The notes beneath the pieces were generated by a model that was not told where the DNA came from, did no database searches, and worked only from the letters and a program-made list of their open reading frames with translations. Of a stretch of 64,000 bases of DNA, positions 11,601-32,100 are shown one piece after another. A program made the translations under genes and the position numbers. The stretch spans positions 33,778,121 to 33,842,120 of the forward strand of contig NC_088711.1 in the NCBI RefSeq assembly GCF_963576615.1, in the 5' to 3' direction. How positions within the stretch are numbered: the stretch's first letter is position 1; each line of letters starts with the position of its first letter. Source of the DNA: Watersipora subatra. Lineage: Eukaryota; Bryozoa; Gymnolaemata; Cheilostomatida; Watersiporidae.

Positions 11601-14600
11601 GAGTATTCAACCAGTATTCATGCTCACTGTGAGGAGATTAGATGAACTGAGAGTATTCATACCTACTGTGTGAAGATTAGATGAACTGAGAGTATTCAAC
11701 CAGTATTCATACTCACTGTGAGGAGATTAGATGAACTGAGAGCATTCAATCAGTATTCATAATCACTGTGTGGCGATTAGATGAACTGGGAGTATTCAAC
11801 CAGTATTCATACTCACTGTGAGGAGATTAGATGAACTGAGAGTATTCAACCAGTATTCATACTCACTGTGAGGAGATTTGATGAACTGAGAGTGTTCACC
11901 CAGTACTTGTTCCATAAAGTATTCAGTATATGTCTGTCTAATTCTGACTTGAAGTATGACACTTCTAGTGAATAGTAGGCTTTGCAATGTACACCTGTTA
12001 CAAAAATGTCTAATTACTTGTTTTAATATATCCCATAAGTTACGATGTTTCAATGACAGCACTCTATATAGCTCATGGCATAAACTTAGCCAGATCACAG
12101 GTTGCATAACTAATATAATTATCAGTACATCACACACTGTGCAAGGCAATTGATATGACAGCAATTTGTACTAACCAAAGTCTTCTATTTTGTTGAGAGG
12201 AATTGTTTGGTACTCTGAAGGTTCCTCATCAGGCGGTTTATAACCCTACAACCAGTAACATAACCTGCATCCATATATTCACATTCTTGTTTTGCACGCA
12301 GGAAAGATCAAATAAATAGACACGAGGGTTTGCGGACACAGTAACTAGACAACTAACCTTGGGATATGTTCGGAAAGCTCCAATAGTAACCTTTCCTGCA
12401 GAAATGGTCCGTACTGGATCAATCTACAATCGATATTCTAACAATTCACTCTAAAACAACATCTGTTGACCAGTGTTGTCTTCTTACAGGTGCATGACAA
12501 GACAAGTTTTCTTTCAAATAATTACATTCGATTACTATGTTAAAAATCATGGAAAATAAAAGATTTGTCTCTCCACATACCTATGAGAGGACAACACCGA
12601 GCATTATCAAAGTATACACGCGGCATTATAATAATCATAATCAAATTGAACAGTTGCTAAACAGTAAAATCAATGACAAACCATTGACTGGCGATGACTC
12701 ACCACAATAGCAACAAAAGGCTCTTGATACTGTTGGTTAGTCATCTGTGTTGACACATCGATTCCCGAAAGCCAACACCCATAGCCTGGGTGACTGTGGT
12801 ACCAGCCTAGTACATTCTCCAAACGACCAACCTAAGCAGCAGAAAAGAATCACAGCCTATGTACTCGCTAATATTTAAATCGCTGCAATTCGGCATTAAC
12901 AATCTCAAACTAAAATTTTTACACTCTAACCAAAGCAGAGGGCCTTTCCTAATAAATGAGTTTTCTGATTTACGGACGTACTTGGTTGGCAGAATCCATA
13001 TAGGCTGTCATATACTCATAGGCTTGTTCATGGGCATTAACTCTCGTTTCAGTCCCTTCCACTGGCAAGGCAAAGCTATCCATTACTACCATAACATTTC
13101 CTACAATTATAGTTTATAGTGAACTTTAAGGGAATAGAAGAGCTGGCTGGTATACATCAGAGTCAAAGCTGTCTGAAATTAATAGATTATGAAGAACGAG
13201 GATAAAACGATATATTTGAAACAAGCCTGAATGGGCTGCAACTGCAAGTACAGCTTATTAATTAAACACCAAGTACATATATGTCAAAGATTGTTGCATG
13301 TTTTGAAACCTACCATCAACCTTCCCTACCATCAGGCCCATCACCTCTAGATTTCCACCAGACCGCGCGTGCATCACCATCTTCAGTAAAGCGAGGGCCG
13401 ACACTTTGATGTGTTTGAAATAATGCATGCTGCAAAATAAACACACACCAAATACATGTATAATGATTATTATCAAAATGTTGAGGCATGCTCAACAACA
13501 CTCAAATACCATTTGCTACTAAAACGAGTTTAGACCACACAAGATGAGCATGTTTGAGACAAACTTAAAATTTATGAATCAACAATAAAAGTCAAACAGC
13601 TAAATAAGCCAAAGAGCAATGTTACATGTAGATTCTCTTTGGTTATTGTAACTATAGCTTTGTATAATATACTACATTCTCGCTAGCAATGTTAGATTTT
13701 CTTAAGCTACATTTAGACAATGCTTGTATAATATACCACAATCTAGCTAGCGAGCATATATACAAACATACGCTTGTATAATATACCACAATCTAGCGAG
13801 CATATATACAAACATACGCTTGTATAATATACCACAATCTAGCGAGCATATATACAAACATACGCTTGTATAATATACCACAATCTAGCGAGCATATATA
13901 CAAACATACGCTTGTATAATATACCACAATCTAGCGAGCATATATACAAACATACGCTTGTATAATATACCACAATCTAGCGAGCATATATACAAACATA
14001 CGCTTGTATAATATACCACAATCTAGCGAGCATATATACAAACATACGCTTGTATAATATACCACAATCTAGCGAGCATATATACAAACATATGCTTGTA
14101 TAATATACCACAATCTAGCGAGCATATATACAAACATATGCTTGTATAATATACCACAATCTAGCGAGCATATATACAAACATATGCTTGTATAATATAC
14201 CACAATCTAGCGAGCATATATACAAACATATGCTTGTATAATATACCACAATCTAGCGAGCATATATACAAACATATGCTTGTATAATATACCACAATCT
14301 AGCGAGCATATATACAAACATATGCTTGTATAATATACCACAATCTAGCGAGCATATATACAAACATATGCTTGTATAATATACCACAATCTAGCGAGCA
14401 TATATACAAACATATGCTTGTATAATATACCACAATCTAGCGAGCATATATACAAACATATGCTTGTATAATATACCACAATCTAGCGAGCATATATACA
14501 AACATATGCTTGTATAATATACCACAATCTAGCGAGCATATATACAAACATATGCTTGTATAATATACCACAATCTAGCGAGCATATATACAAACATATG

Positions 14601-17600
14601 CTTGTATAATATACCACAATCTAGCGAGCATATATACAAACATATGCTTGTATAATATACCACAATCTAGCGAGCATATATACAAACATATGCTTGTATA
14701 ATATACCACAATCTAGCGAGCATATATACAAACATATGCTTGTATAATATACCACAATCTAGCGAGCATATATACAAACATACGCTTGTATAATATACCA
14801 CAATCTAGCGAGCATATATACAAACATACGCTTGTATAATATACCACAATCTAGCGAGCATATATACAAACATACGCTTGTATAATATACCACAATCTAG
14901 CGAGCATATATACAAACATACGCTTGTATAATATACCACAATCTAGCGAGCATATATACAAACATATGCTTGTATAATATACCACAATCTAGCGAGCATA
15001 TATACAAACATATGCTTGTATAATATACCACAATCTAGCGAGCATATATACAAACATATGCTTGTATAATATACCACAATCTAGCGAGCATATATACAAA
15101 CATATGCTTGTATAATATACCACAATCTAGCGAGCATATATACAAACATATGCTTGTATAATATACCACAATCTAGCGAGCATATATACAAACATATGCT
15201 TGTATAATATACCACAATCTAGCGAGCATATATACAAACATATGCTTGTATAATATACCACAATCTAGCGAGCATATATACAAACATATGCTTGTATAAT
15301 ATACCACAATCTAGCGAGCATATATACAAACATATGCTTGTATAATATACCACAATCTAGCGAGCATATAAAACTACATAGAAAAATACTCGTAAATAAA
15401 ACACTCATAGAAAAATACTCGTAAATAAAACACTCATAGAAAAATACTCGTAAATAAAACACTCATAGAAAAATACTCGTAAATAAAACACTCATAGAAA
15501 AATACTCGTAAATAAAACACTCATAGAAAAATACTCGTAAATAAAACACTCATAGAAAAATACTCGTAAATAAAACACTCATAGAAAAATACTCGTAAAT
15601 AAAACACTCATAGAAAAATACTCGTAAATAAAACACTCATAGAAAAATACTCGTAAATAAAACACTCATAGAAAAATACTCGTAAATAAAACACTCATAG
15701 AAAAATACTCGTAAATAAAATTAGATTAAGTCTAACAATTTTACATACTAATGAAGAAAATAGAATGCTGACTTACAGACATACGGAACAATGTCTATCT
15801 AAACAACTACCTTAGATCTACTGAGAACTCATACACAAACTATCAACAACTTTGATTGTGACTCTAAATTTATTAATTAGTAAATATTTTCCTAGATGCA
15901 GTTAAAAAAAAAGAATTGCTAGGCTAGAAATTCCCCTGTCATACAGCCCACGACCAAAGTGATATTGGAAAAAAGAAAGGGTACTGATGGTTGAGAAATG
16001 CAATATTAGCAGTCAAATGGCACTGCAGCGCAATAGGATAACTGCAATGGTAGCTGTAATGTACTGGTTGTGGGTGTTATTATATACAACAAAAAGCAAT
16101 AATGAAAGGAAAAGATTATGTTTATATTTTTCCCCCTTATTATATTATTATATATATATTATTATATTAGAAGTAAAATGCACTGATATTATTAGAATAA
16201 CCAATATTATTAATATAGCAATAGTAGAAAACCAATGCACAATTTTGTTTACATTTCAAAACGCCATAGCTAACAATATCAAGACGTTGTGATATTTATA
16301 TAGATTTTTAGAAAATCTATTTAACAAAACTATTTAGAAAAAATATTAACAGTAACATATTACCCATCATAGATGTTGTTAGTGTGACTATTACACTTCA
16401 ATAGTCATCCAAACTTTTAACTAAATATTGTAATAATCTCATAAGAATCGTTAGAAAAAAATATCATCGTCATTTCCTTTACTTTCACTGCTTTGGACAT
16501 CAGTTAGAATACCAAAGTATTAAAAAGTTTCCAAAATGTCAGTTACTTTGAAATCGGCAAAAATGAAACGATTTCTGTACTTCTACATTAATTACAGAAA
16601 CCTTCGGCAATTCGACAATGCTATAGACTGGTGAAATGTGCACGTTATTTTGTCGTGAAATGCGCACGGCTTAATGGTTCTATTCTCTGTCGCTCGGCGT
16701 TTCGTTTTCCTGTCTTAATTTTGATAAAAGTAAGGCTTGGCCAGATTTAATAACAATTTTCGGCCAAATTATTCTCTCTTTTTGTGTATAATCCGATCAG
16801 ATGGGTAAGTTTTAAGATACTGTCGACAATTTACAAAGACTTGGTAACATATTTAAATAGGCTTATATGTGTTTTGTATCGTTATTATACTTTAATGAAT
16901 CTAGAAAAACGATGGTTAAATTTGTTGATGAGATTTCGGTGCAAGGGTTTGCGACGTTGTTGATGAATAATTTTCGTAAGTTGTGTGCACATGCATTTAT
17001 CAAAAAGACTCTCAAACATTCGATCCGCTCATTTGGTCGCAGGATAAGTCTCCGTGTTTGTCATTTGTTTGTAGGTCATTTGCGTTTGCAGCTTTAGGAA
17101 TGAAAACTCCACTTTGCTGGGAAATTGAACTCTGAACCCCCAGATCTGAAGACAGGCATTCCATCCATTACACTACAAGTCCAACTGGCATTAGAATGGA
17201 ATAATTGTGAATATACTTATGCACCTGCCAATCTTCAACGCTGATTGGTTAAATAGCACGCTTCATGCTTCAGCTAGCACGCTTGAAAATCATGATTGCG
17301 TGAGAGATCATAATGCAATCTTTTTTCACAACGCTGGCGTCAAGGGTACGAACACGGGTCTTATTCTAGTTTAATTACTCAAATATTTTTGAGTGAAGAA
17401 ACTCGGCCAATTAAAAATAATATTTCTATGCAAAAAGCCTTTTTTATTACCTGTTAAATGCCGAGCACTTCGCAAATAAAACTATATAAAAGTAAAAAAC
17501 AATAGACGGTGACTGCATAATTTTGATGATTGTGGAAAAACTTCACCTAGTATACAAAATTAGTCGAGTGTAAATAAAGTTTGCCTCTAAATAATATGTC

Positions 17601-21553: not shown

Positions 21554-24500
21554 GTAGTATATTTTGGCTGATGATATATTGAATCAGGTTTTAGCATAAA
21601 TAACTTGAATTTAATTTTGAGCGTAAATTTTACTATTGAAGGCAACTCTTATAAGGGTACAGATAGTTAGGTGGCTGGATAGAAGTTAGAAGGTACAATT
21701 ATATTTAATTTAGGCATATTATATTTAATTTAGACATATTATCTTTAATTTAGTAAAATTACAGCTCCGTTACAGTAGGTTAGAAGCAGAAGGCTAAATA
21801 GATGTGGAGAATAATTAAGCTACGAAGGATCGTAGTTAGTAGAACATAAATGTCACAGCTAAATGTACAAAATGCGTGGAAAGGAGTGGCTCAACGTGCC
21901 GATAATTCTGGAACATAGAATTTGACCGGTTGGTCTGAGCGCTAAGCAAAGGTTTGTTGTTGTAAAATGTTTTTATAAGACTGCGCAGAGTTTAAAGTTT
22001 ATTTTCACTCATTTAGGGAAGGCTGTGTAGTGTATCTCACTTAATGATGGGAGGGATTGCCAAATAACGTGGTGATATCGGTTTAAGACGCAGAGTGAGC
22101 GACAACCCGCAAGAGGTGTCGTTTTGCAGTTAGTCTGAACAACCTGACCAGAAGATAATAAGCTACTAATAATAAGGCAAACACGTAGCTGTTTACATAA
22201 TTGAGACTTTTAGAGCATAATTAAAAATTCCTGCCTCTATTTGGCTTGATTTTTCTAATGTGCAGATTAGTTAGTCTCAAAGATGTGAAACAAGTGACCT
22301 TTTTGATCACATTAAAAAGGTAAAAAAATTATATAAGGCAGTTGATTATTTCAAAATAACAATACGTAAAAAATTCTCCAGTAATAAAACTATTCTCGTA
22401 TAAATTTTGTTACTTAGCTAGACCAGCTTATCAAGTAAAAGTTTATACTAGATGAAAATCGTGAGCATTAGATTTTTGTGTTTTTGTATATTTCCATTTC
22501 TTTTCTTTATGGATAGTCTAGTATCTGATTGTTGCACACCTGGTTCTCTTTTTTTACTCCTTTCAATGAAGCCATAAATGGCACATTGTTGTCAAGGAAA
22601 GGATTGCAACGTTATAAATCATCTGTTAGCCATTTATTCCTAGATAAGTTGACAAGTATCTGGCTAGATCTAAAAGTCAGTCCCTAATGTCTCAAGAAAG
22701 TCAACAAAAGTAAAGATTTTTTACACAACTATCACACACATCGATCAATATCTATCCCAAACTTTGGCTTCCAAACTGTATAGCCTATTGCAGAAAGTAA
22801 GCTAAAAGGTATAACAAACAGGTCATCAAACGAGAGATATGACGTATTATAACAAGTTGTTTTAGTTGGTTGCACAATATTTTTAAGCATGGATACAAAT
22901 ACATGTACTCTAAAAAAACTAAGTGTCATAAAAACTTCTCTAAACTTGCATCAAACAGTCTAACAACTTAGACGGAAGTCTGAGATTCACAAATACTGAG
23001 ATTAGTGGGTACATCAAGAAGGAACCAAAGCTAAGCTTAATCAGAAGGGTATACACTTTGATAATATGAATTGATGCACCATATGCTACAGAGACTGCAA
23101 ATCCTGCATGTTTCTTTAGTCACATGAATGTCATTTCTAGTGGCATAACGATATCAGTAATGATGCTGCTTGATGTTAACCCAATTAAACAATAGTATAG
23201 TCTGGACATGCTGACCAGTATTATCAATCAATCCTAAATTATTCTACGGATCTTTTTCAAACTCTGCTCGAAGTTGTAACCTTTTGTACAGTTGATTACT
23301 GAATACAATAAATAGATAATTTTTTTCTGGAATCTTTTTCAAGAGCCATTTGAATTTGCTAATTTTTGCTCCAAATCAATATGTAGGTGGATTCATCACA
23401 GTAAAATTTGAAAATCACAACTATTTGCTTGCAATACAAAGAATTGGTTTTTAGTTTGTGCTATCTCAATGTTGCTGCAATTTCCTACTAATTCAGCTTG
23501 TTTTTTTCTGTAATATTATGTCTTTTATACTTTGTCTTGAGTCTATTTTACCCATTTAGGTCAAAAAATATGCAGATATATAATGAAAGTTGTTAGCCAC
23601 TATTATTTAAATCTAGTTGGCCATTTTACGCAGCTATCAGTGCATGAATATCGATCTATGAGAAACGTTGCTGTATTTTTCAGGTTTCACAAACATATTT
23701 AACAAGATCCTCATGCGTTTATACCAATAGGCCTGCTTGCCTCAAGAGCTCAGCTTTAGCGCATCATAGTTGGTTAGTGAGCTCTGCAAGGAAGTATGCT
23801 ACGAGGGCTCGTCAACCGACTCATGGTAGAAGGAAAGGGAGTCACACGAGTACAGTGATGTATGTGGCAGCAATGGGAATCACTATGGCGGGCACCGCGT
23901 ATGCCGCCGTGCCTCTGTATCGCATGTTCTGCGCTGTAAGTCTTGTTAATTGTCAGACCAACTGGCTGAGCAGGTATATTTACATTATTAATATATTATA
24001 TTTACATTATTAATATATTATATTTACATTATTAATATATTATATTTACATTATTAATATATTATATTTACATTATTAATATATTATATTTACATTATTA
24101 ATATATTATATTTACATTATTAATATATTATATTTACATTATTAATATATTATATTTACATTATTAATATATTATATTTACATTATTAATATATTATATT
24201 TACATTATTAATATATTATATTTACATTATTAATATATTATATTTACATTATTAATATATTATATTTACATTATTAATATATTATATTTACATTATTAAT
24301 ATATTATATTTACATTATTAATATATTATATTTACATTATTAATATATTATATTTACATTATTAATATATTATATTTACATTATTAATATATTATATTTA
24401 CATTATTAATATATTATATTTACATTATTAATATATTATATTTACATTATTAATATATTATATTTACATTATTAATATATTATATTTACATTATTAATAT

Positions 24501-27500
24501 ATTATATTTACATTATTAATATATTATATTTACATTATTAATATATTATATTTACATTATTAATATATTATATTTACATTATTAATATATTATATTTACA
24601 TTATTAATATATTATATTTACATTATTAATATATTATATTTACATTATTAATATATTATATTTACATTATTAATATATTATATTTACATTATTAATATAT
24701 TATATTTACATTATTAATATATTATATTTACATTATTAATATATTATATTTACATTATTAATATATTATATTTACATTATTAATATATTATATTTACATT
24801 ATTAATATATTATATTTACATTATTAATATATTATATTTACATTATAAATATCATAGAACAGAAATAAAGATGAGCTCTAAATTTTTATCAGAAATGCAA
24901 TTTCAAGTTTTCAGCCAGCACACTCAGCATGCTTACTTTTAGTAAGTTTGAGCAGCTTAATGACATGTGAATGTATTTACATCTATCATCAAGCTATAAA
25001 CAAATTTACTTTTCTAAATAGGTCTATGCTAAATATATTTAAAGTTGTAAAATGTAAAAGTTCAATACGTACGAATATTTTTGGAGAATTCTTGGAAATT
25101 TCAATGTCCCTTTGAATTACACCACTTCAGATACAACACTAGAAACGGTGTAATTCCATGCGATGTTGGAATTTCCAAGAAGTTCCACAAAAAACATGGA
25201 CACGCATTGAACTTCTATATTTGATAGCTCAAAAGTACAATCGCCACTCGAGTCAATTTGATTGGAACCCGTAATATACACTATATTGTAAATAATTGTT
25301 CATTTCTAGTCATAGAACAGTAAACTGAGAGTTGTCTTCTCTTTCACCATTGTTAATATTGAAAAAAAGGAAACATACCTCTGTACATGTATTACTGATT
25401 TTTTGCTATTTGGCTAACTAAATGTATGTCTAAACCTATATTATAAAATTGTTTAATTTTAATATTTGTTCAACAATTGTTTCTGTTGATGACTTTCTAC
25501 CTGAAGTCATCATCAGAATCAACTAAATCTTTTATCAAAACAAACCGAGTTATTAAAATGACGCAAATTAAAATGACTACTGTCATTTTAATTTGCGTTA
25601 TTTGTGTTACACATTTAAGAATACTCTATGAGTTTTCAAGTACAACATTAATGGACAACTTCAAGGCAATTCATTATGCAAAGTAGTTGGTTGGTTTTAT
25701 TCTGGATGATTCACAGAGGTTTTAGCTAATAGCAACTATTGTTGGAAGTCAATAATATGATATAAAAGTATGCCAAAAGAATGTTATGAAAGTGTGTAAA
25801 TCTATTCATAAGTATCAGCTTTTGATTAGAGTTGATAAGTAAGTACATGTACATAAATACTGTATATCACACACTATATTTGACATGTAAGTACATGTAT
25901 ATAAATACTGTATATCACATACGATATTTGATATGTAAGTACATGTATAGAAATACTGTATATCACACACTATATTTGACATGTGAGTACATGTATATAA
26001 ATACGTTATATCACACACTATATTTGATAAGTAAGTACATGTATATAAATACTGTGTATCACTCATTATATTTGATAAGTAAGTACATGTATATAAATAC
26101 TGTATATCACATACGATATTTGATATGTAAGTACATGTATATAAATACGTTATATTACACACTATATTTGATATGTAAGTACATAAATATAAATACTGTA
26201 TATCACATACGATATTTGATATGTAAGTACATGTATAGAAATACTGTATATCACACACTATATTTGACATGTGAGTACATGTATATAAATACGTTATATC
26301 ACACACTATATTTGATAAGTAAGTACATGTATATAAATACTGTGTATCACTCATTATATTTGATAAGTAAGTACATGTATATAAATACTGTATATCACAT
26401 ACGATATTTGATATGTAAGTACATGTATATAAATACGTTATATTACACACTATATTTGATATGTAAGTACATAAATATAAATACTGTATATCACATACGA
26501 TATTTGATATGTAAGTACATGTATAGAAATACTGTATATCACACACTATATTTGACATGTGAGTACATGTATATAAATACGTTATATCACACACTATATT
26601 TGATAAGTAAGTACATGTATATAAATACTGTGTATCACTCATTATATTTGATAAGTAAGTACATGTATATAAATACTGTATACCACACACTATATTTGAT
26701 ATGTAAGTACATGTATATAAATACTGTATATCACTCACTATATTGGATAAGTAAGTACATGTATATAAATACTGCATATCACGCACTATATTTGATAAGT
26801 AAGTGCGTGTATATAAATACTGTATATCACGCACTATATTTGATAAGTAAGTACAAGTATATAAATACTGTATATCACACACTATATTTGATAAGTAAGT
26901 ACAAGTATATAAATACTGTATATCACACACTATATTTGATAAGTAAGTACAAGTATATAAATACTGTATATCACACACTATATTTGATAAGTAAGTACAA
27001 GTATATAAATACTGTATATCACACACTATACTTGATAAGTAAGTACAAGTATATAAATACTGTATATCACACACTATATTTGATAAGTAAGTACAAGTAT
27101 ATAAATACTGCATATCACGCACTATATTTGATAAGTAAGTACAAGTATATAAATACTGTATATCACACACTATATTTGATAAGTAAGTACAAGTATATAA
27201 ATACTGTATATCACACACTATATTTGATAAGTAAGTACAAGTATATAAATACTGTATATCACACACTATATTTGATAAGTAAGTACAAGTATATAAATAC
27301 TGTATATCACACACTATATTTGATAAGTAAGTACAAGTATATAAATACTGTATATCACACACTATATTTGATAAGTAAGTACAAGTATATAAATACTGTA
27401 TATCACACACTATATTGCAGATGTTCCTGTGTACATACAAATTGAGAAAATTTGTTTTGTATAACTTAGCCAGGGATATAGGCTTTGATCATGCTTGTTC

Positions 27501-29070
27501 ATAAGCTAGTCGCTATAAATTACTTAGCTTAAATGTGTGTAGTAGTAGACTGAGATCTTGGCTATAAATGATGAGTGGCATAAACCTTGTTAATCGTTGT
27601 CATTGTATGTACATGTACATTAAGAGTATTGATATGGTAGGAGTAATGCTAGTCTCTCTCTCCTCTTCCCTCTCTCCTCTTCTCTCTCTCTCCCTCTCTC
27701 TCCTCCCTCTCTCTCCTCCCTCTCTCTCCTCTCTCTCTCTTCTCTCTTATATATATATACATGTATATATATACGTGTATATATATATATAATGGGGATA
27801 ATCAAAGACACTTCACGACAAATAGAAAACATTAAAAAAGACCTCTGCAAGATATTCAAAAACCATGGACTGCGGATCACTATTGATGCAAACAGAAAGT
27901 CTGTGAACTACCTCGACATTACCCTGGATTTAAACAACGGCAATTACAAGCCTTTCAACAAGCCAAATAACTTGCCAATTTATGTGAGCTCAAAATCCAG
28001 CCACCCTAGAAACATCAAAAACCTACCAGGAGGTATAAACAGCAGGCTTTGCGCGCTCTCCTCTGACCACAATACATTCGAGTCATCGACCAAAATCTAC
28101 CAAACACCTTTAAAGAATAGTGAGTACAACCACAAACTCTAATATTTTCCTATAGCAACACCTCAAACTAAAAGGAAAAACTGAGCGCGTAACACTACTT
28201 GGTAAACCCCCCCCCCCCCCATTCAGCAAACATGTCGCAACCAACATCGGCAGACAATTCTTAAGAATCGTCAGAGAAGAATATCCTGAGAACCCATTGC
28301 ACACCATATTCAACAAGAACACTCTAAAAATCAGCTACAGCTGTATGAAAAACATAAAAAAACATCATCGACTCGCGCAACCTAAAACCCTTGAAGGGCG
28401 AAGAATCTACTAGGAAAGATTCACAGGCAAATGCTTGCAACTGTCGTGTAAAAACCAACTGCCCACTACAAGGGAAATGTTTGCAGTCTGCTATAATTTA
28501 CCAAGCCACTGTCACCTCCCCCGACGGTGAAGCTAACTACATTGGCTTAACATAAACTTCATTTAAAACGCGCTATAACAATCATGAAGGGTCATTTACA
28601 CAACGAAATAAAAGAACTGCCACTGAACTCAGCAAGCACATATGGCGGTTGAAGGATTCAAACACTAACTATTCCATTAACTGGAGAATACTGGAGCAGT
28701 CCATACCGCTGGCCAATGGCTCTAAAAACTGTCCCTGGTGTCTACAAGAAAAATTTTATATTATATACAGGCCACACCTTGGTTCATTGAACAAACACAC
28801 TGAACTCGTCAGCAACTGCAAACATGCTAACAAGTTTCTACTGTCCAATTTAAAAACCTAATGCTTCTATGAATCCATAATCTTCCAGCTATGAAGTTTT
28901 AGTAATTCTAATAGTTCTAGCTGTATATAAGTAACCAAAACTGGTGCTAACATTTTATCTGAAGATTGCTCTTGCCAAGCATGAAACTAATAGTAGTAAA
29001 GTGTTTTATCTAAAGTTATAGTCTGTTTTATTGATTTATACATGTATATGTATACATGTATATGTATACA

Positions 29071-29117
<47 letters not shown>

Positions 29118-32100
29118 GTATATATACTCATGCTACAGACAGTACTGTTTCAGCTATTGAGGCCTCATCAGTGCAGCTCAGAGCTTAGGCAAGGGACACA
29201 AATCCCATTACCTATGAGAGTTGACTTCCTGCCACGAAACAACTAAGTTGCCTCGCAGACTTTAAGAAAGGCAATGTGCTGGCACCAGAGTGCTCAAATC
29301 ACAAAAGTGATGAGCTTTGCACAAAGGCTAATAGTGCCGCACCTCTCACAGAGTGCTCAACCAAACTGAAGTGAGGGAGCATATACTCATGCTACAGACA
29401 GTTCTGTTTCGGCTATTGAAGCCTCATCCGTGCAGCTCAGAGCTTAGGCAAGGGACACAAATCCCATTACCCATGAGAGTTGACTTCCTGCCACAAAACA
29501 ACTAAGTTGCCTCGCAGACTTTAAGAAAGTCAATGTGCTGGCACCAGAGTGCTCAAATCACAATAGTGATGAGCTTTGCACAAAGGCTGTATATGTATAT
29601 ATATATATATAAATAAATAGATATATATATATGTATATATTTTAACATTCAATAAAAATATAGTGTCACCAAGTCATTGACTGTTCATTTTTTTAAAGAT
29701 ATTGTTGCCAGGTGACAACAGAGGCTAGGCAGACAGTGTGAAACTACTAATATTATGGTAGGATGTTGACAGACCAGCGCCGTCCCTTTTGTACCGAGTT
29801 GACATGTTTTGAAGGAGAGTACTGCAATTATCTACCAACATAACCTTGACTACTATTTAATTGTCAATTTGCTAGAAGGAAATTTTAAGGGTTATTCCAC
29901 AGGAGTTTTGTGAAAGCTTTAGATTTGAGCAATCAAAATGCATAATTTTTGTGGTTAGTGTGTTTTTTCAAATTTATTTATTTTGTATCATACAGCTACA
30001 ATCTGTTGCAAGTTTACTTTGCAATAAATTGGAGACAAATAACCTCTCATTGTGCTGCTGAAACTTTTTATAATTTGAATGACTTTAGGCAACAACATAT
30101 TTTTCCCTTTAACTATTCTATTCAAAGCTGCTGTGTTAAAAGCACTCTCGAAAGTTTTCTTTTATTTACATGCACAGGCAACTGGTTTAGGTGGCCAAAC
30201 TAAAGCATCCCATGACAACAGTGGCAAAATTGCTGACCTTGAAGTTGTCGATGATCGAGAACTTACTGTAAAATTCAATGCTGATGTTGCTTCCAGTATG
30301 CAATGGAACTTTCAACCACAGCAACATGAAATTAAGGTTGGTTGATAAGTTGTCTTCTTTATGCTTTCAAATATCTTATGGATATCTTTCTATGGTGGTG
30401 AAATAGATCCATAATAATAAACTGTAAAAAAATCATAACTGTTTTCAGGAGTTCCACTAAATGGCTAGTGATACGATTTAATACTATTGAAAGCCAATTT
30501 CTTTTATCAGCTTTCAGAATAGCTGGGTTCCTATGAAATAATTTACTACCACAACATAATACTTGTTAACCAGCGGCCTATACAATATTGTTCACTTATT
30601 AGAGCAGGATGCAAGTAGGTCACCTGACCCATTTTTCCTACTAATAAAAAGCCTCACTGTGTTGATCGTAAACTTTTTTGCGCTGCTCACATCACTATAA
30701 ATGTGACTGAAAAGGTGTACTGTAATATGTCGAAAAAATCTTAGAATTCATTTATTCTCTCAATATTACAATAGTGTTGGCAATAATGCCTTTTTATTTG
30801 AAATATGTGATTAGGTGAGATAAAACAACTAATTTCATTGTTTTAAGCCACTACTTATTCCTTGCCTGATGTTTACATTTGTTACTGTACCACAAATGAA
30901 TGATATAGATTCATCAATAGCCTGAAAGATCTGGTAGTCAGTTTTTATTCTGCAAAAAAAATGTTTCACCATTGTGACAAATGATAGAGAGGTATGGCAG
31001 AAGAATGTCTAGGATTGCTTTGATTTAGCAGAGAATAAATAGACAAATAAACTCTAACAGATTTATGCAGGAACAGCTAGTGAAGTTTTTTATTTCCCTC
31101 AGACAAATGGGCACAAAAACAAGTCAGAAGTAGACAAATCCAAAATAAACTGACTGAAAATAAAGTTTAGGTTCATATCCACAGTTCTTCAAACTAAAGC
31201 AATATAAAACAACAGAATGATCATATACATTCCCCTTTACTGCTAGTGTAATTAATGCTATACAAGTGTGTAAATCTATTAATAAATATCAGCTTGTGAT
31301 TAAAGTTGATGTGTAAGTGTATATATATACTGTATATCACATACCATATTGTAGGTGTACCTGTGTACATACAACTTGAGAAACTTTGCCTTTCATAAGT
31401 TATCATCGGGTATTACAGTAAGTTGCAGTAGTTGTTGGAATGGTTGAGACTCGTCAGTGATTTGATCTTTCATCAAGTAATAAGTTCTGTACTACTGCCT
31501 TGAGAGGTTTCATCAAGTAATAAGTTCTGTACTACTGCCTTGAGAGGTTTCATCAAGTAATAAGTTCTGTACTACTGCCTTGAGAGGTTTCATCAAGTAA
31601 TAAGTTCTGTACTACTGCCTTGAGAGGTTTCATCAAGTAATAAGTTTTGTACTACTGCCTTGAGAGGTTTCAATCAAGCAACAGTGTTCAGTGCAAGTTT
31701 CTCTTCAGTTATTTGTTAAATTTTTTATTTCATATCGTTCCTGTCTAGGTCTTACCAGGAGAGACAGCGTTAGCTTTCTACACAGCTAGAAATCCTACAG
31801 ATAAACCTATTATAGGAATTTCCACCTATAATGTGATACCTTTTGATGCTGCCCAGTATTTTAATAAAATACAGGTGAGTTGAAGCTGTCATGAAGAAGT
31901 TTCCAATAATTTTATACAAGAGTTTTGCAAAGCAAGCAAAATAAACTGTACCTTGAGCTTTATAGTGTAGTACTTTAACAACTCCTTATTTTCATGTTGA
32001 GTTTAAAAGGTTTATCCTCTATTCTTTGTTTACCGGTAAGAAAGTTTCTTTTTACTACCCATTGTCATGTTGTAAAAATGAAATAGGGTTATACACATTT

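What the first reader, a model, noticed from the sequence alone, without database searches (positions are those of the whole stretch)
29122..29589. Tandem hammerhead ribozymes: a retrozyme in COX11 intron 2
The minus strand folds into two type I hammerheads 259 nt apart. Copy 1 has the complete core CUGAUGA...GAAA, a 6-bp stem I, and cleavage after GUC. Stem III is a palindromic ACAG/CUGU with a 2-nt loop, which would favour dimeric action. Known retrozymes and Penelope pLTRs share this plan. The unit is non-coding and would yield a 259-nt circular RNA. Copy 2 has an inactivating U4 to G change and copy 1 a G-U pair closing stem II, so the locus looks recently active but decaying.
Basis: partly seen in the sequence, partly recalled or inferred. 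Interest (0 to 1): 0.85.

Follow-up and report, generated by a model that had tools for sequence, protein, structure and literature searches.

The report
Ribozyme circle riding a Penelope retrotransposon
A short non-coding repeat that cuts itself with a hammerhead ribozyme has spread through this genome, and its copies carry the same small RNA hairpin, start point and AT-repeat landing sites as the local Penelope-type retrotransposons, which suggests that those enzymes copy it from RNA circles.

Summary
The minus strand at 29122-29588 carries 1.8 units of a 259-nt repeat, each with a type I hammerhead, in a COX11 intron. It is one of over a thousand copies (1341 terminal-junction places, 969 exact ribozymes) and best read as a metazoan non-LTR retrozyme, a known kind. 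What goes further is how it probably moves. (1) 42 of 45 examined segments end at one point of the unit, 16 nt past the ribozyme cut, inside UAUAU, usually next to (TA)n, with variable 5' ends. (2) Units within an insertion are often identical (43 of 70 pairs) while loci differ (mean 2.5%), as if one RNA circle was reverse transcribed round and round. (3) Penelope-like elements of this genome, one directly beside this copy, share the (TA)n target, fixed 3' ends, head-to-head twins and an upstream hammerhead. (4) Past the start point both carry a bulged hairpin, GCUC-stem-UU-GAGC-ACUCU, with covarying inner stems across eight types. I conclude that retrozymes are probably circular, SINE-like passengers of Penelope elements. 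This copy is decayed: one ribozyme has lost U4. Circular RNA and the enzyme-hairpin contact are inferred, not shown.

The parts
29122..29588 (-). Retrozyme copy, 1.8 units of 259 nt: complete 3' unit 29122-29380 and 5'-truncated unit 29381-29588; 3' end on the minus strand is at 29122
   Evidence: 46.5% GC, longest sense open frame 30 codons on the tripled unit
29132..29177 (-). Hammerhead 1 (3' unit): intact core, G-U at base of stem II; predicted cut between 29138 and 29137
29391..29436 (-). Hammerhead 2 (5' unit): core CGGAUGA, U4 lost, predicted inactive
29122..29127 (-). 3' junction / inferred reverse-transcription start, GUAUAU running into (TA)n, 16 nt past the ribozyme cut
   Evidence: 42 of 45 examined segments end at this point of the unit; 1341 junction places in the genome
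29349..29380 (-). Bulged hairpin A, GCUC-stem-UU-GAGC-ACUCUG, directly past the start site in the circular unit
29286..29315 (-). Bulged hairpin B of the 3' unit, GCUC-AUCAC(UUUU)GUGAU-UU-GAGC-ACUCUG
29545..29574 (-). Bulged hairpin B of the 5' unit
27795..29036 (+). 5'-truncated Penelope-like element (PLE1): remains of RT C-terminus and endonuclease, stops inside; short 3' end without tail, tail-to-tail with the retrozyme across a (TA)n stretch
   Evidence: other copies show FDIVEFYPS and LYRDD
28949..29005 (+). Hammerhead of PLE1: stem I AACAUUUUAU/GUAAAGUGUU, CUGAAGA, GAAA, stem III ACU/AGU
   Evidence: read by eye; my strict descriptor misses it (no plus-strand hit), as a U-U lies at the base of stem II
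29037..29121 (.). (TA)n-type microsatellite between the two elements, shared target
29589..29640 (.). (TA)n microsatellite on the 5' side of the retrozyme

Best explanation
The locus is one decayed insertion of a young, high-copy metazoan non-LTR retrozyme. Most likely cycle: arrays are transcribed, the type I hammerhead cuts the RNA into 259-nt monomers, which are closed into circles (inferred). A Penelope-like reverse transcriptase/endonuclease made elsewhere recognises the bulged hairpin just past the start site, which the circle shares with Penelope 3' tails (shared element shown; binding inferred). It nicks a (TA)n microsatellite, the TA primer anneals to UAUAU at the foot of the hairpin, and cDNA is made round the circle one or more times, giving a fixed 3' end, a variable 5' end and arrays of identical units (junctions and identity shown; order of steps inferred). 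Retrozymes would thus be circular SINE-like parasites of Penelope elements.
For: Fixed 3' end: 42 of 45 segments at unit position 252-259; 31 of 45 have a 3' flank of at least 80% TA/AT steps, against 2.9% of random 40-mers in the fetched loci and 0.03% in the window. 1341 terminal-junction places, reversed control 0. One-circle template: 43 of 70 within-insertion unit pairs identical, mean 0.78%, against 2.5% between loci (3755 pairs). Penelope copies: same (TA)n target, fixed 3' ends, head-to-head twins. Shared 12-mer, twice in the unit. Hairpin: eight types, 28 flush inner pairs, only the true pairing of 40320 permutations reaches this; in PLE-B the outer pair itself is compensated (ACUC/GAGU). 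Shuffles with the same bulged shape and GAG: 0 of 5000 for each of three Penelope families not found by the pattern, 1 of 5000 for the retrozyme (hairpin B). Circular fold of the majority unit gives the outer stem of hairpin A at P 0.73 and of B at 0.98-0.99. Published: a Penelope protein starts reverse transcription internally, downstream of its hammerhead, after cutting AT-rich DNA (PMC11167929).
Against: The covariance model built on PLE1 tails does not find the retrozyme significantly (best window hit is hairpin B, E 1.6). The shared 12-mer alone is only moderately unlikely (15 of 5000 tail shuffles and 29 of 5000 unit shuffles reach the score; 28 of 12656 overlapping window 59-mers too). 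F2, F3 and F4 were found with the bracket pattern, so only their inner stems count; F2-F5 are not tied to a protein, and no hammerhead was seen in F4. As best linear structure the bulged shape appears in only 8 of 17 PLE1 tail copies and 6 of 9 representatives; many PLE1 tails prefer GAGC pairing with a GCUC behind it. Penelope twins mostly have one tailed and one tailless arm (10 of 12 PLE1, 8 of 8 F2 pairs), whereas 3 of 4 retrozyme twins end alike on both arms. Only 46 of 128 variant events are shared by all units of a locus. Bulged shapes without the GAG demand arise in 157 of 5000 retrozyme shuffles. No RNA data; organism unnamed; Pfam and PDB give no relevant hit for the Penelope proteins.
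Confidence: 0.8

Rival explanations
1. A retrozyme mobilised by another reverse transcriptase (a LINE with AT-rich targets); the hairpin likeness to Penelope tails is coincidence or an old capture.
For: LINEs also give fixed 3' ends and 5' truncation (recalled); the PLE1 covariance model does not recognise the retrozyme.
Against: Sequence, bulge, position next to the start site and covariation agree in eight types; same (TA)n target and head-to-head twins.
Confidence: 0.1
2. The template is a linear multimeric transcript of an existing array, not a circle; identical units come from young tandem arrays.
For: A linear multimer read from an internal start would also give more than one unit with this 3' end; arrays exist in the genome.
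Against: Up to 5.4 units in one insertion are identical while loci differ from one another; a long uncut transcript would have to escape ribozymes that are intact in 969 places.
Confidence: 0.15
3. Ordinary satellite DNA spread by unequal crossing-over or extrachromosomal circles, with relic hammerheads.
For: Tandem repeats, homogeneous arrays.
Against: Over a thousand dispersed short copies sharing one 3' end beside (TA)n with variable 5' ends.
Confidence: 0.03

Closest known systems
Metazoan non-LTR retrozymes (Cervera and de la Pena 2020, PMC7229834)
   Same: Type I hammerhead, non-coding unit within 170-400 nt, dimers to multimers, dispersed; Penelope elements with hammerheads in the same genome; a palindromic stem III/loop recalls the dimer-acting amphibian motifs.
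   Different: Here single-template arrays, the fixed 3' junction in (TA)n and a hairpin shared with Penelope tails are shown by sequence; circular RNA was shown there, not here.
Penelope-like elements with pLTR, tail and hammerhead (PMC11167929, PMC3846280)
   Same: Hammerhead upstream of an internal start, optional tail, head-to-head twins, AT-rich targets, mobilisation of foreign sequence in trans.
   Different: The retrozyme has no reading frame, carries two hairpins and uses one start site in 42 of 45 segments. The Anolis template printed in PMC11167929 does not contain GAGCACUCU (read by eye).
SINE-LINE pairs with shared 3' ends (recalled)
   Same: Short non-coding passenger imitates the recognition end of an autonomous partner.
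   Different: The passenger template would be a circle, so insertions can exceed one unit.

Membership tests
Metazoan non-LTR retrozyme | Type I hammerhead in each unit | tested here: met
   not recognised by Rfam models
Metazoan non-LTR retrozyme | Short tandem units, about 170-400 bp, dimers to multimers, dispersed | tested here: met
   259 bp, up to 5.4 units in the examined loci
Metazoan non-LTR retrozyme | Non-coding, low G+C | tested here: met
   46.5% GC, longest sense open frame 30 codons on a tripled unit; the paper gives both <45% (figure) and <50% (text), and only the second is met
Metazoan non-LTR retrozyme | Target-site duplications, when present | tested here: inconclusive
   copies lie in (TA)n, where duplications cannot be told from the repeat
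Metazoan non-LTR retrozyme | Expressed as linear and circular monomers | not testable with these tools
   no RNA data
Plant LTR retrozyme | Type III hammerheads in LTRs, PBS and PPT, 600-800 nt | tested here: not met
   type I topology and 259-nt unit; PBS and PPT were not searched
Penelope-like element (neighbour PLE1 and families B and C) | RT with FD..EFYPS and YRDD, followed by a GIY-YIG endonuclease in one frame | tested here: inconclusive
   motifs visible in PLE1 copies and in PLE-B but their meaning is recalled; PLE-C known only by 55% identity over 98 aa; no relevant Pfam or PDB hit
Penelope-like element | Optional tail on one of two head-to-head arms, AT-rich target, hammerhead | tested here: met
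   10 of 12 PLE1 pairs and 8 of 8 F2 pairs are tail/no-tail; hammerheads read by eye in PLE1, B, C, F2, F3, F5, none in F4; of three PLE sequences given to the strict descriptor only PLE-C passes

The most novel reading that the evidence does not exclude
A bulged hairpin at the reverse-transcription start is the recognition code of these Penelope elements, kept by covariation across families; ribozyme-made RNA circles have adopted it, so retrozymes are circular SINEs inserted by target-primed rolling-circle reverse transcription. The hairpin variant even tells which helper: the retrozyme carries the PLE1/PLE-C type (GCUC/GAGC, ACUCU), not the PLE-B type (ACUC/GAGU).
Probability: 0.65. Interest if true: 0.8.

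Novelty: new member of a known kind. Interest (0 to 1): 0.66.

Why it matters
Which enzyme moves animal retrozymes is open: the two 2020 papers name Penelope elements only as a strong or likely candidate, from co-occurrence and shared hammerheads. Here sequence gives a testable partner, a start nucleotide, a target and a recognition hairpin in one genome. It would tie genome-encoded RNA circles to a specific reverse transcriptase, explain why the repeats are tandem and homogeneous, and give Penelope biochemistry a short natural template.

Tried and rejected
Rfam, gathering and E up to 10: no hammerhead; family search in the genome: two sub-threshold matches, and sub-threshold matches also rang in 11 of 14 control genomes, so worthless as evidence. 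Covariance model of PLE1 tails: not significant on the retrozyme. Pfam, PDB and plasmid searches for the Penelope proteins: nothing relevant; NCBIfam for one Penelope piece: nothing. The first bracket pattern with fixed spacing found nothing in the window (the spacing chosen, 13, is none of those that occur there). Plain satellite, LINE helper and linear template were weighed as rivals. Target-site duplications could not be read. A shared hairpin or a shown Penelope helper did not come up (open-licence PMC full text; mostly listings). The 2014 and 2017 Penelope-hammerhead papers and a 2021 Penelope paper are not held, so a known hairpin there cannot be excluded. Papers seen: PMC7229834 parts 1-4 of 6; PMC11167929 parts 1-3 of 4; PMC7761336, PMC3846280 and PMC8490949 passages only; all others as search listings. 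One search (Penelope with YRDD) found no paper to support the motif reading.

Full report
What is there. On the minus strand at 29122-29588 lie 1.8 units of a 259-bp repeat. Each unit holds a type I hammerhead: stem I GCUGCA/UGUAGC, core CUGAUGA and GAAA, stem II GGC/GCC in the common form, stem III ACAG-UA-CUGU, cut after GUC. Copy 1 has a G-U at the base of stem II, copy 2 reads CGGAUGA. The two window units differ at 8 of 208 shared positions and from the majority unit at 6 (of 259) and 5 (of 208) positions. The descriptor scan, written after seeing the site, finds one hit in the window and none in 60 shuffles. Rfam finds none. The element lies antisense in a COX11 intron.

How common. One DNA search scored 40 of 1514 candidates and returned 96 matches. 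The terminal-junction pattern occurs 1341 times with up to 3 mismatches (reversed control 0), the internal-junction pattern 738 times (control 0), so many insertions are shorter than one unit. The intact 46-nt ribozyme occurs exactly 969 times (control 0).

How copies end. I examined 45 segments in the loci held, dropping L009 and L053 as duplicates of L001 and L052. The loci were chosen by similarity to the window copy or to its Penelope neighbour, and 5 of the about 40 clusters, long arrays among them, were not fetched, so array lengths are biased. 42 of 45 end at unit position 252-259...GUAGCAUGAGUAUAU, 16 nt past the ribozyme cut; 31 of 45 run into a 3' flank made at least 80% of TA/AT steps, and 20 of 45 have such a 5' flank; 5' ends start at many positions. 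A linear monomer cut at both ends could not give this; the template must be a circle or an uncut multimer.

One template per insertion. Of 70 unit pairs within insertions 43 are identical (mean 0.78%, median 0, including one poorly aligned old pair in L030, and L053 not dropped here); 3755 pairs between loci differ by 2.5% on average, 74 of them not at all. Nine variants occur in at least 3 loci. Counting only loci with two or more units at the site, all units agree in 6 of 6 (position 8), 4 of 4 (27), 1 of 1 (49), 9 of 10 (168), 2 of 3 (126), but only 2 of 6 (145), 1 of 3 (146) and 0 of 3 (153), sites of C-to-T or G-to-A change; for position 43 the printed counts leave 0 or 1 of 2. Over all 128 variant events 46 are shared by all units, the rest are private to some. 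This fits repeated passes round one RNA circle followed by private decay, though gene conversion is not excluded.

The neighbour. At 27795-29036, plus strand, lies a 5'-truncated element whose other copies show FDIVEFYPS and LYRDD and a C-terminal part with IIYQA...YIGL; I take it as Penelope-like from these motifs (recalled). No relevant Pfam or PDB match supports it. Its copies also end at fixed points followed by TA-rich repeats, either ...TTTTATTGATT or, 59 nt further...TTTTACTTATG, and often stand in head-to-head pairs. One arm has the 59-nt tail and the other not in 10 of 12 pairs: seven read in fetched sequence (L010, L011, L012/L016, L018, L023/L026, L028, and L014/L015 whose matched parts lie 1.6 kb apart), and three judged from the positions (C4:27.54, C5:42.90, C6:4.78 Mb; no tail within 3 mismatches on one arm). 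The exceptions, with a tail on both arms, are C5:43.97 and C5:44.46 Mb. A similar rule is described for Penelope: an optional tail on one of the inverted repeats (PMC3846280, passages), two adjacent start sites in vitro (PMC11167929), and AT-rich targets. A retrozyme piece lies in 5 of the 30 fetched PLE1 loci L009-L038 (L009 which is the window, L018, L024, L030, L035); some of these loci overlap. Chance would give about 0.15 at 1341 per 784 Mb with 3 kb of flank per locus; old pieces not in the 1341 make this a little low. A shared liking for (TA)n explains it; L095 shows another retrozyme piece just behind a different Penelope tail.

The shared hairpin. The PLE1 tail and the unit share TTGAGCACTCTG, twice in the unit; alone this is moderately unlikely (15 and 29 of 5000 shuffles). 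Written as RNA, each place is a hairpin with a two-base bulge: GCUC-inner stem-loop-inner stem-UU-GAGC-ACUCU. Pattern searches with free inner sequence gave 428, 19 and 11 places (reversed controls 0, 0 and 1; only the first 100 of the 428 were listed). Some are retrozymes, PLE1 or chance; others led to families F2, F3 and F4. PLE-C (L095) and PLE-B (L094, L098) were reached through the protein search, not the pattern, and F5 lay in L094. F2-F5 are not tied to a protein: I call them Penelope-type from the hammerhead, tail rule and hairpin, and F4 shows only the hairpin in the 301 bases held. Inner stems: PLE1 UGAU/AUCA, PLE-C UGUUU/AAACA, F4 UAUU/AAUA, F2 CAU/AUG, F5 CAA/UUG, retrozyme A CC/GG then AC(UUCG)GU, retrozyme B AUCAC/GUGAU, PLE-B CACUAA/UUAGUG; F3 is like PLE1 and was left out of the permutation. 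Counting at most four per type there are 28 flush pairs; only the true pairing of 40320 permutations reaches this. PLE-B also changes the outer stem in a matched way (ACUC/GAGU) and has UA for UU. Shuffle controls with the same bulged shape and at least four inner pairs: PLE-B 47, PLE-C 53, PLE1 2 and retrozyme 157 of 5000; with GAG 0, 0, 0 and 1 of 5000 (hairpin A has only two flush pairs and does not meet this shape test). The first start site lies roughly 0 to 12 nt before the outer stem in the retrozyme, PLE1, F2 and PLE-B (read); for PLE-C it was not determined.

Against. The covariance model is not significant. Linear folds put the bulged shape first in 8 of 17 PLE1 tails and in 6 of 9 representatives, although the circular fold of the majority unit gives both retrozyme hairpins. 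Retrozyme twins do not follow the tail rule: L002, L039 and L042 end alike on both arms, and in L046 the second arm ends at position 217, not in TA. 3 of 45 segments end elsewhere.

Conclusion. Shown: a high-copy, young, type I hammerhead repeat with one main 3' junction, homogeneous arrays, and a hairpin and target shared with Penelope-type elements. Inferred: RNA circles, recognition of the hairpin by the Penelope protein, rolling reverse transcription. Published work on animal retrozymes proposes Penelope elements as candidate helpers from co-existence; I saw no report of a shared recognition hairpin in the searches named under Tried and rejected, within their limits.

Noticed in passing
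G000 C2:46.35-53.85 Mb (listing, first 100 of 428 places): Family F3 hairpins (GCTCTGATTTATCATTGAGC...) are dense here: the 13 listed from 46.35 to 48.97 Mb are all on the minus strand, the 27 or so listed from 50.0 to 53.85 Mb all on the plus strand, a strand switch that looks like a mirrored array, perhaps around a centromere.
   Followed up: no
L084-L091: Family F2 twins: in 8 of 8 loci where both arms were matched (of 14 fetched), one arm ends before the hairpin and the other about 28 nt after ACUCUG, which points to two start sites used on the two target strands.
   Followed up: partly
window 13720-15370, 15377-15720, 23975-24852, 25832-27416: Long minisatellites (46 bp x 35.8 at 99% matches, 29 bp x 11.9 at 100%, 22 bp x 39.9 at 99%, 48 bp x 33 at 92%); the last two lie in the same COX11 intron.
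   Followed up: no
L072, L073 and C8:16602705-16604543: Retrozyme copies spaced 258 nt, with a base missing in the loop region of hairpin B: a separate subfamily.
   Followed up: no
L098: Penelope family B has many long open frames (several of 709 codons, one of 821 that includes a masked stretch), often in head-to-head pairs, so a possibly working helper may exist in this genome.
   Followed up: partly
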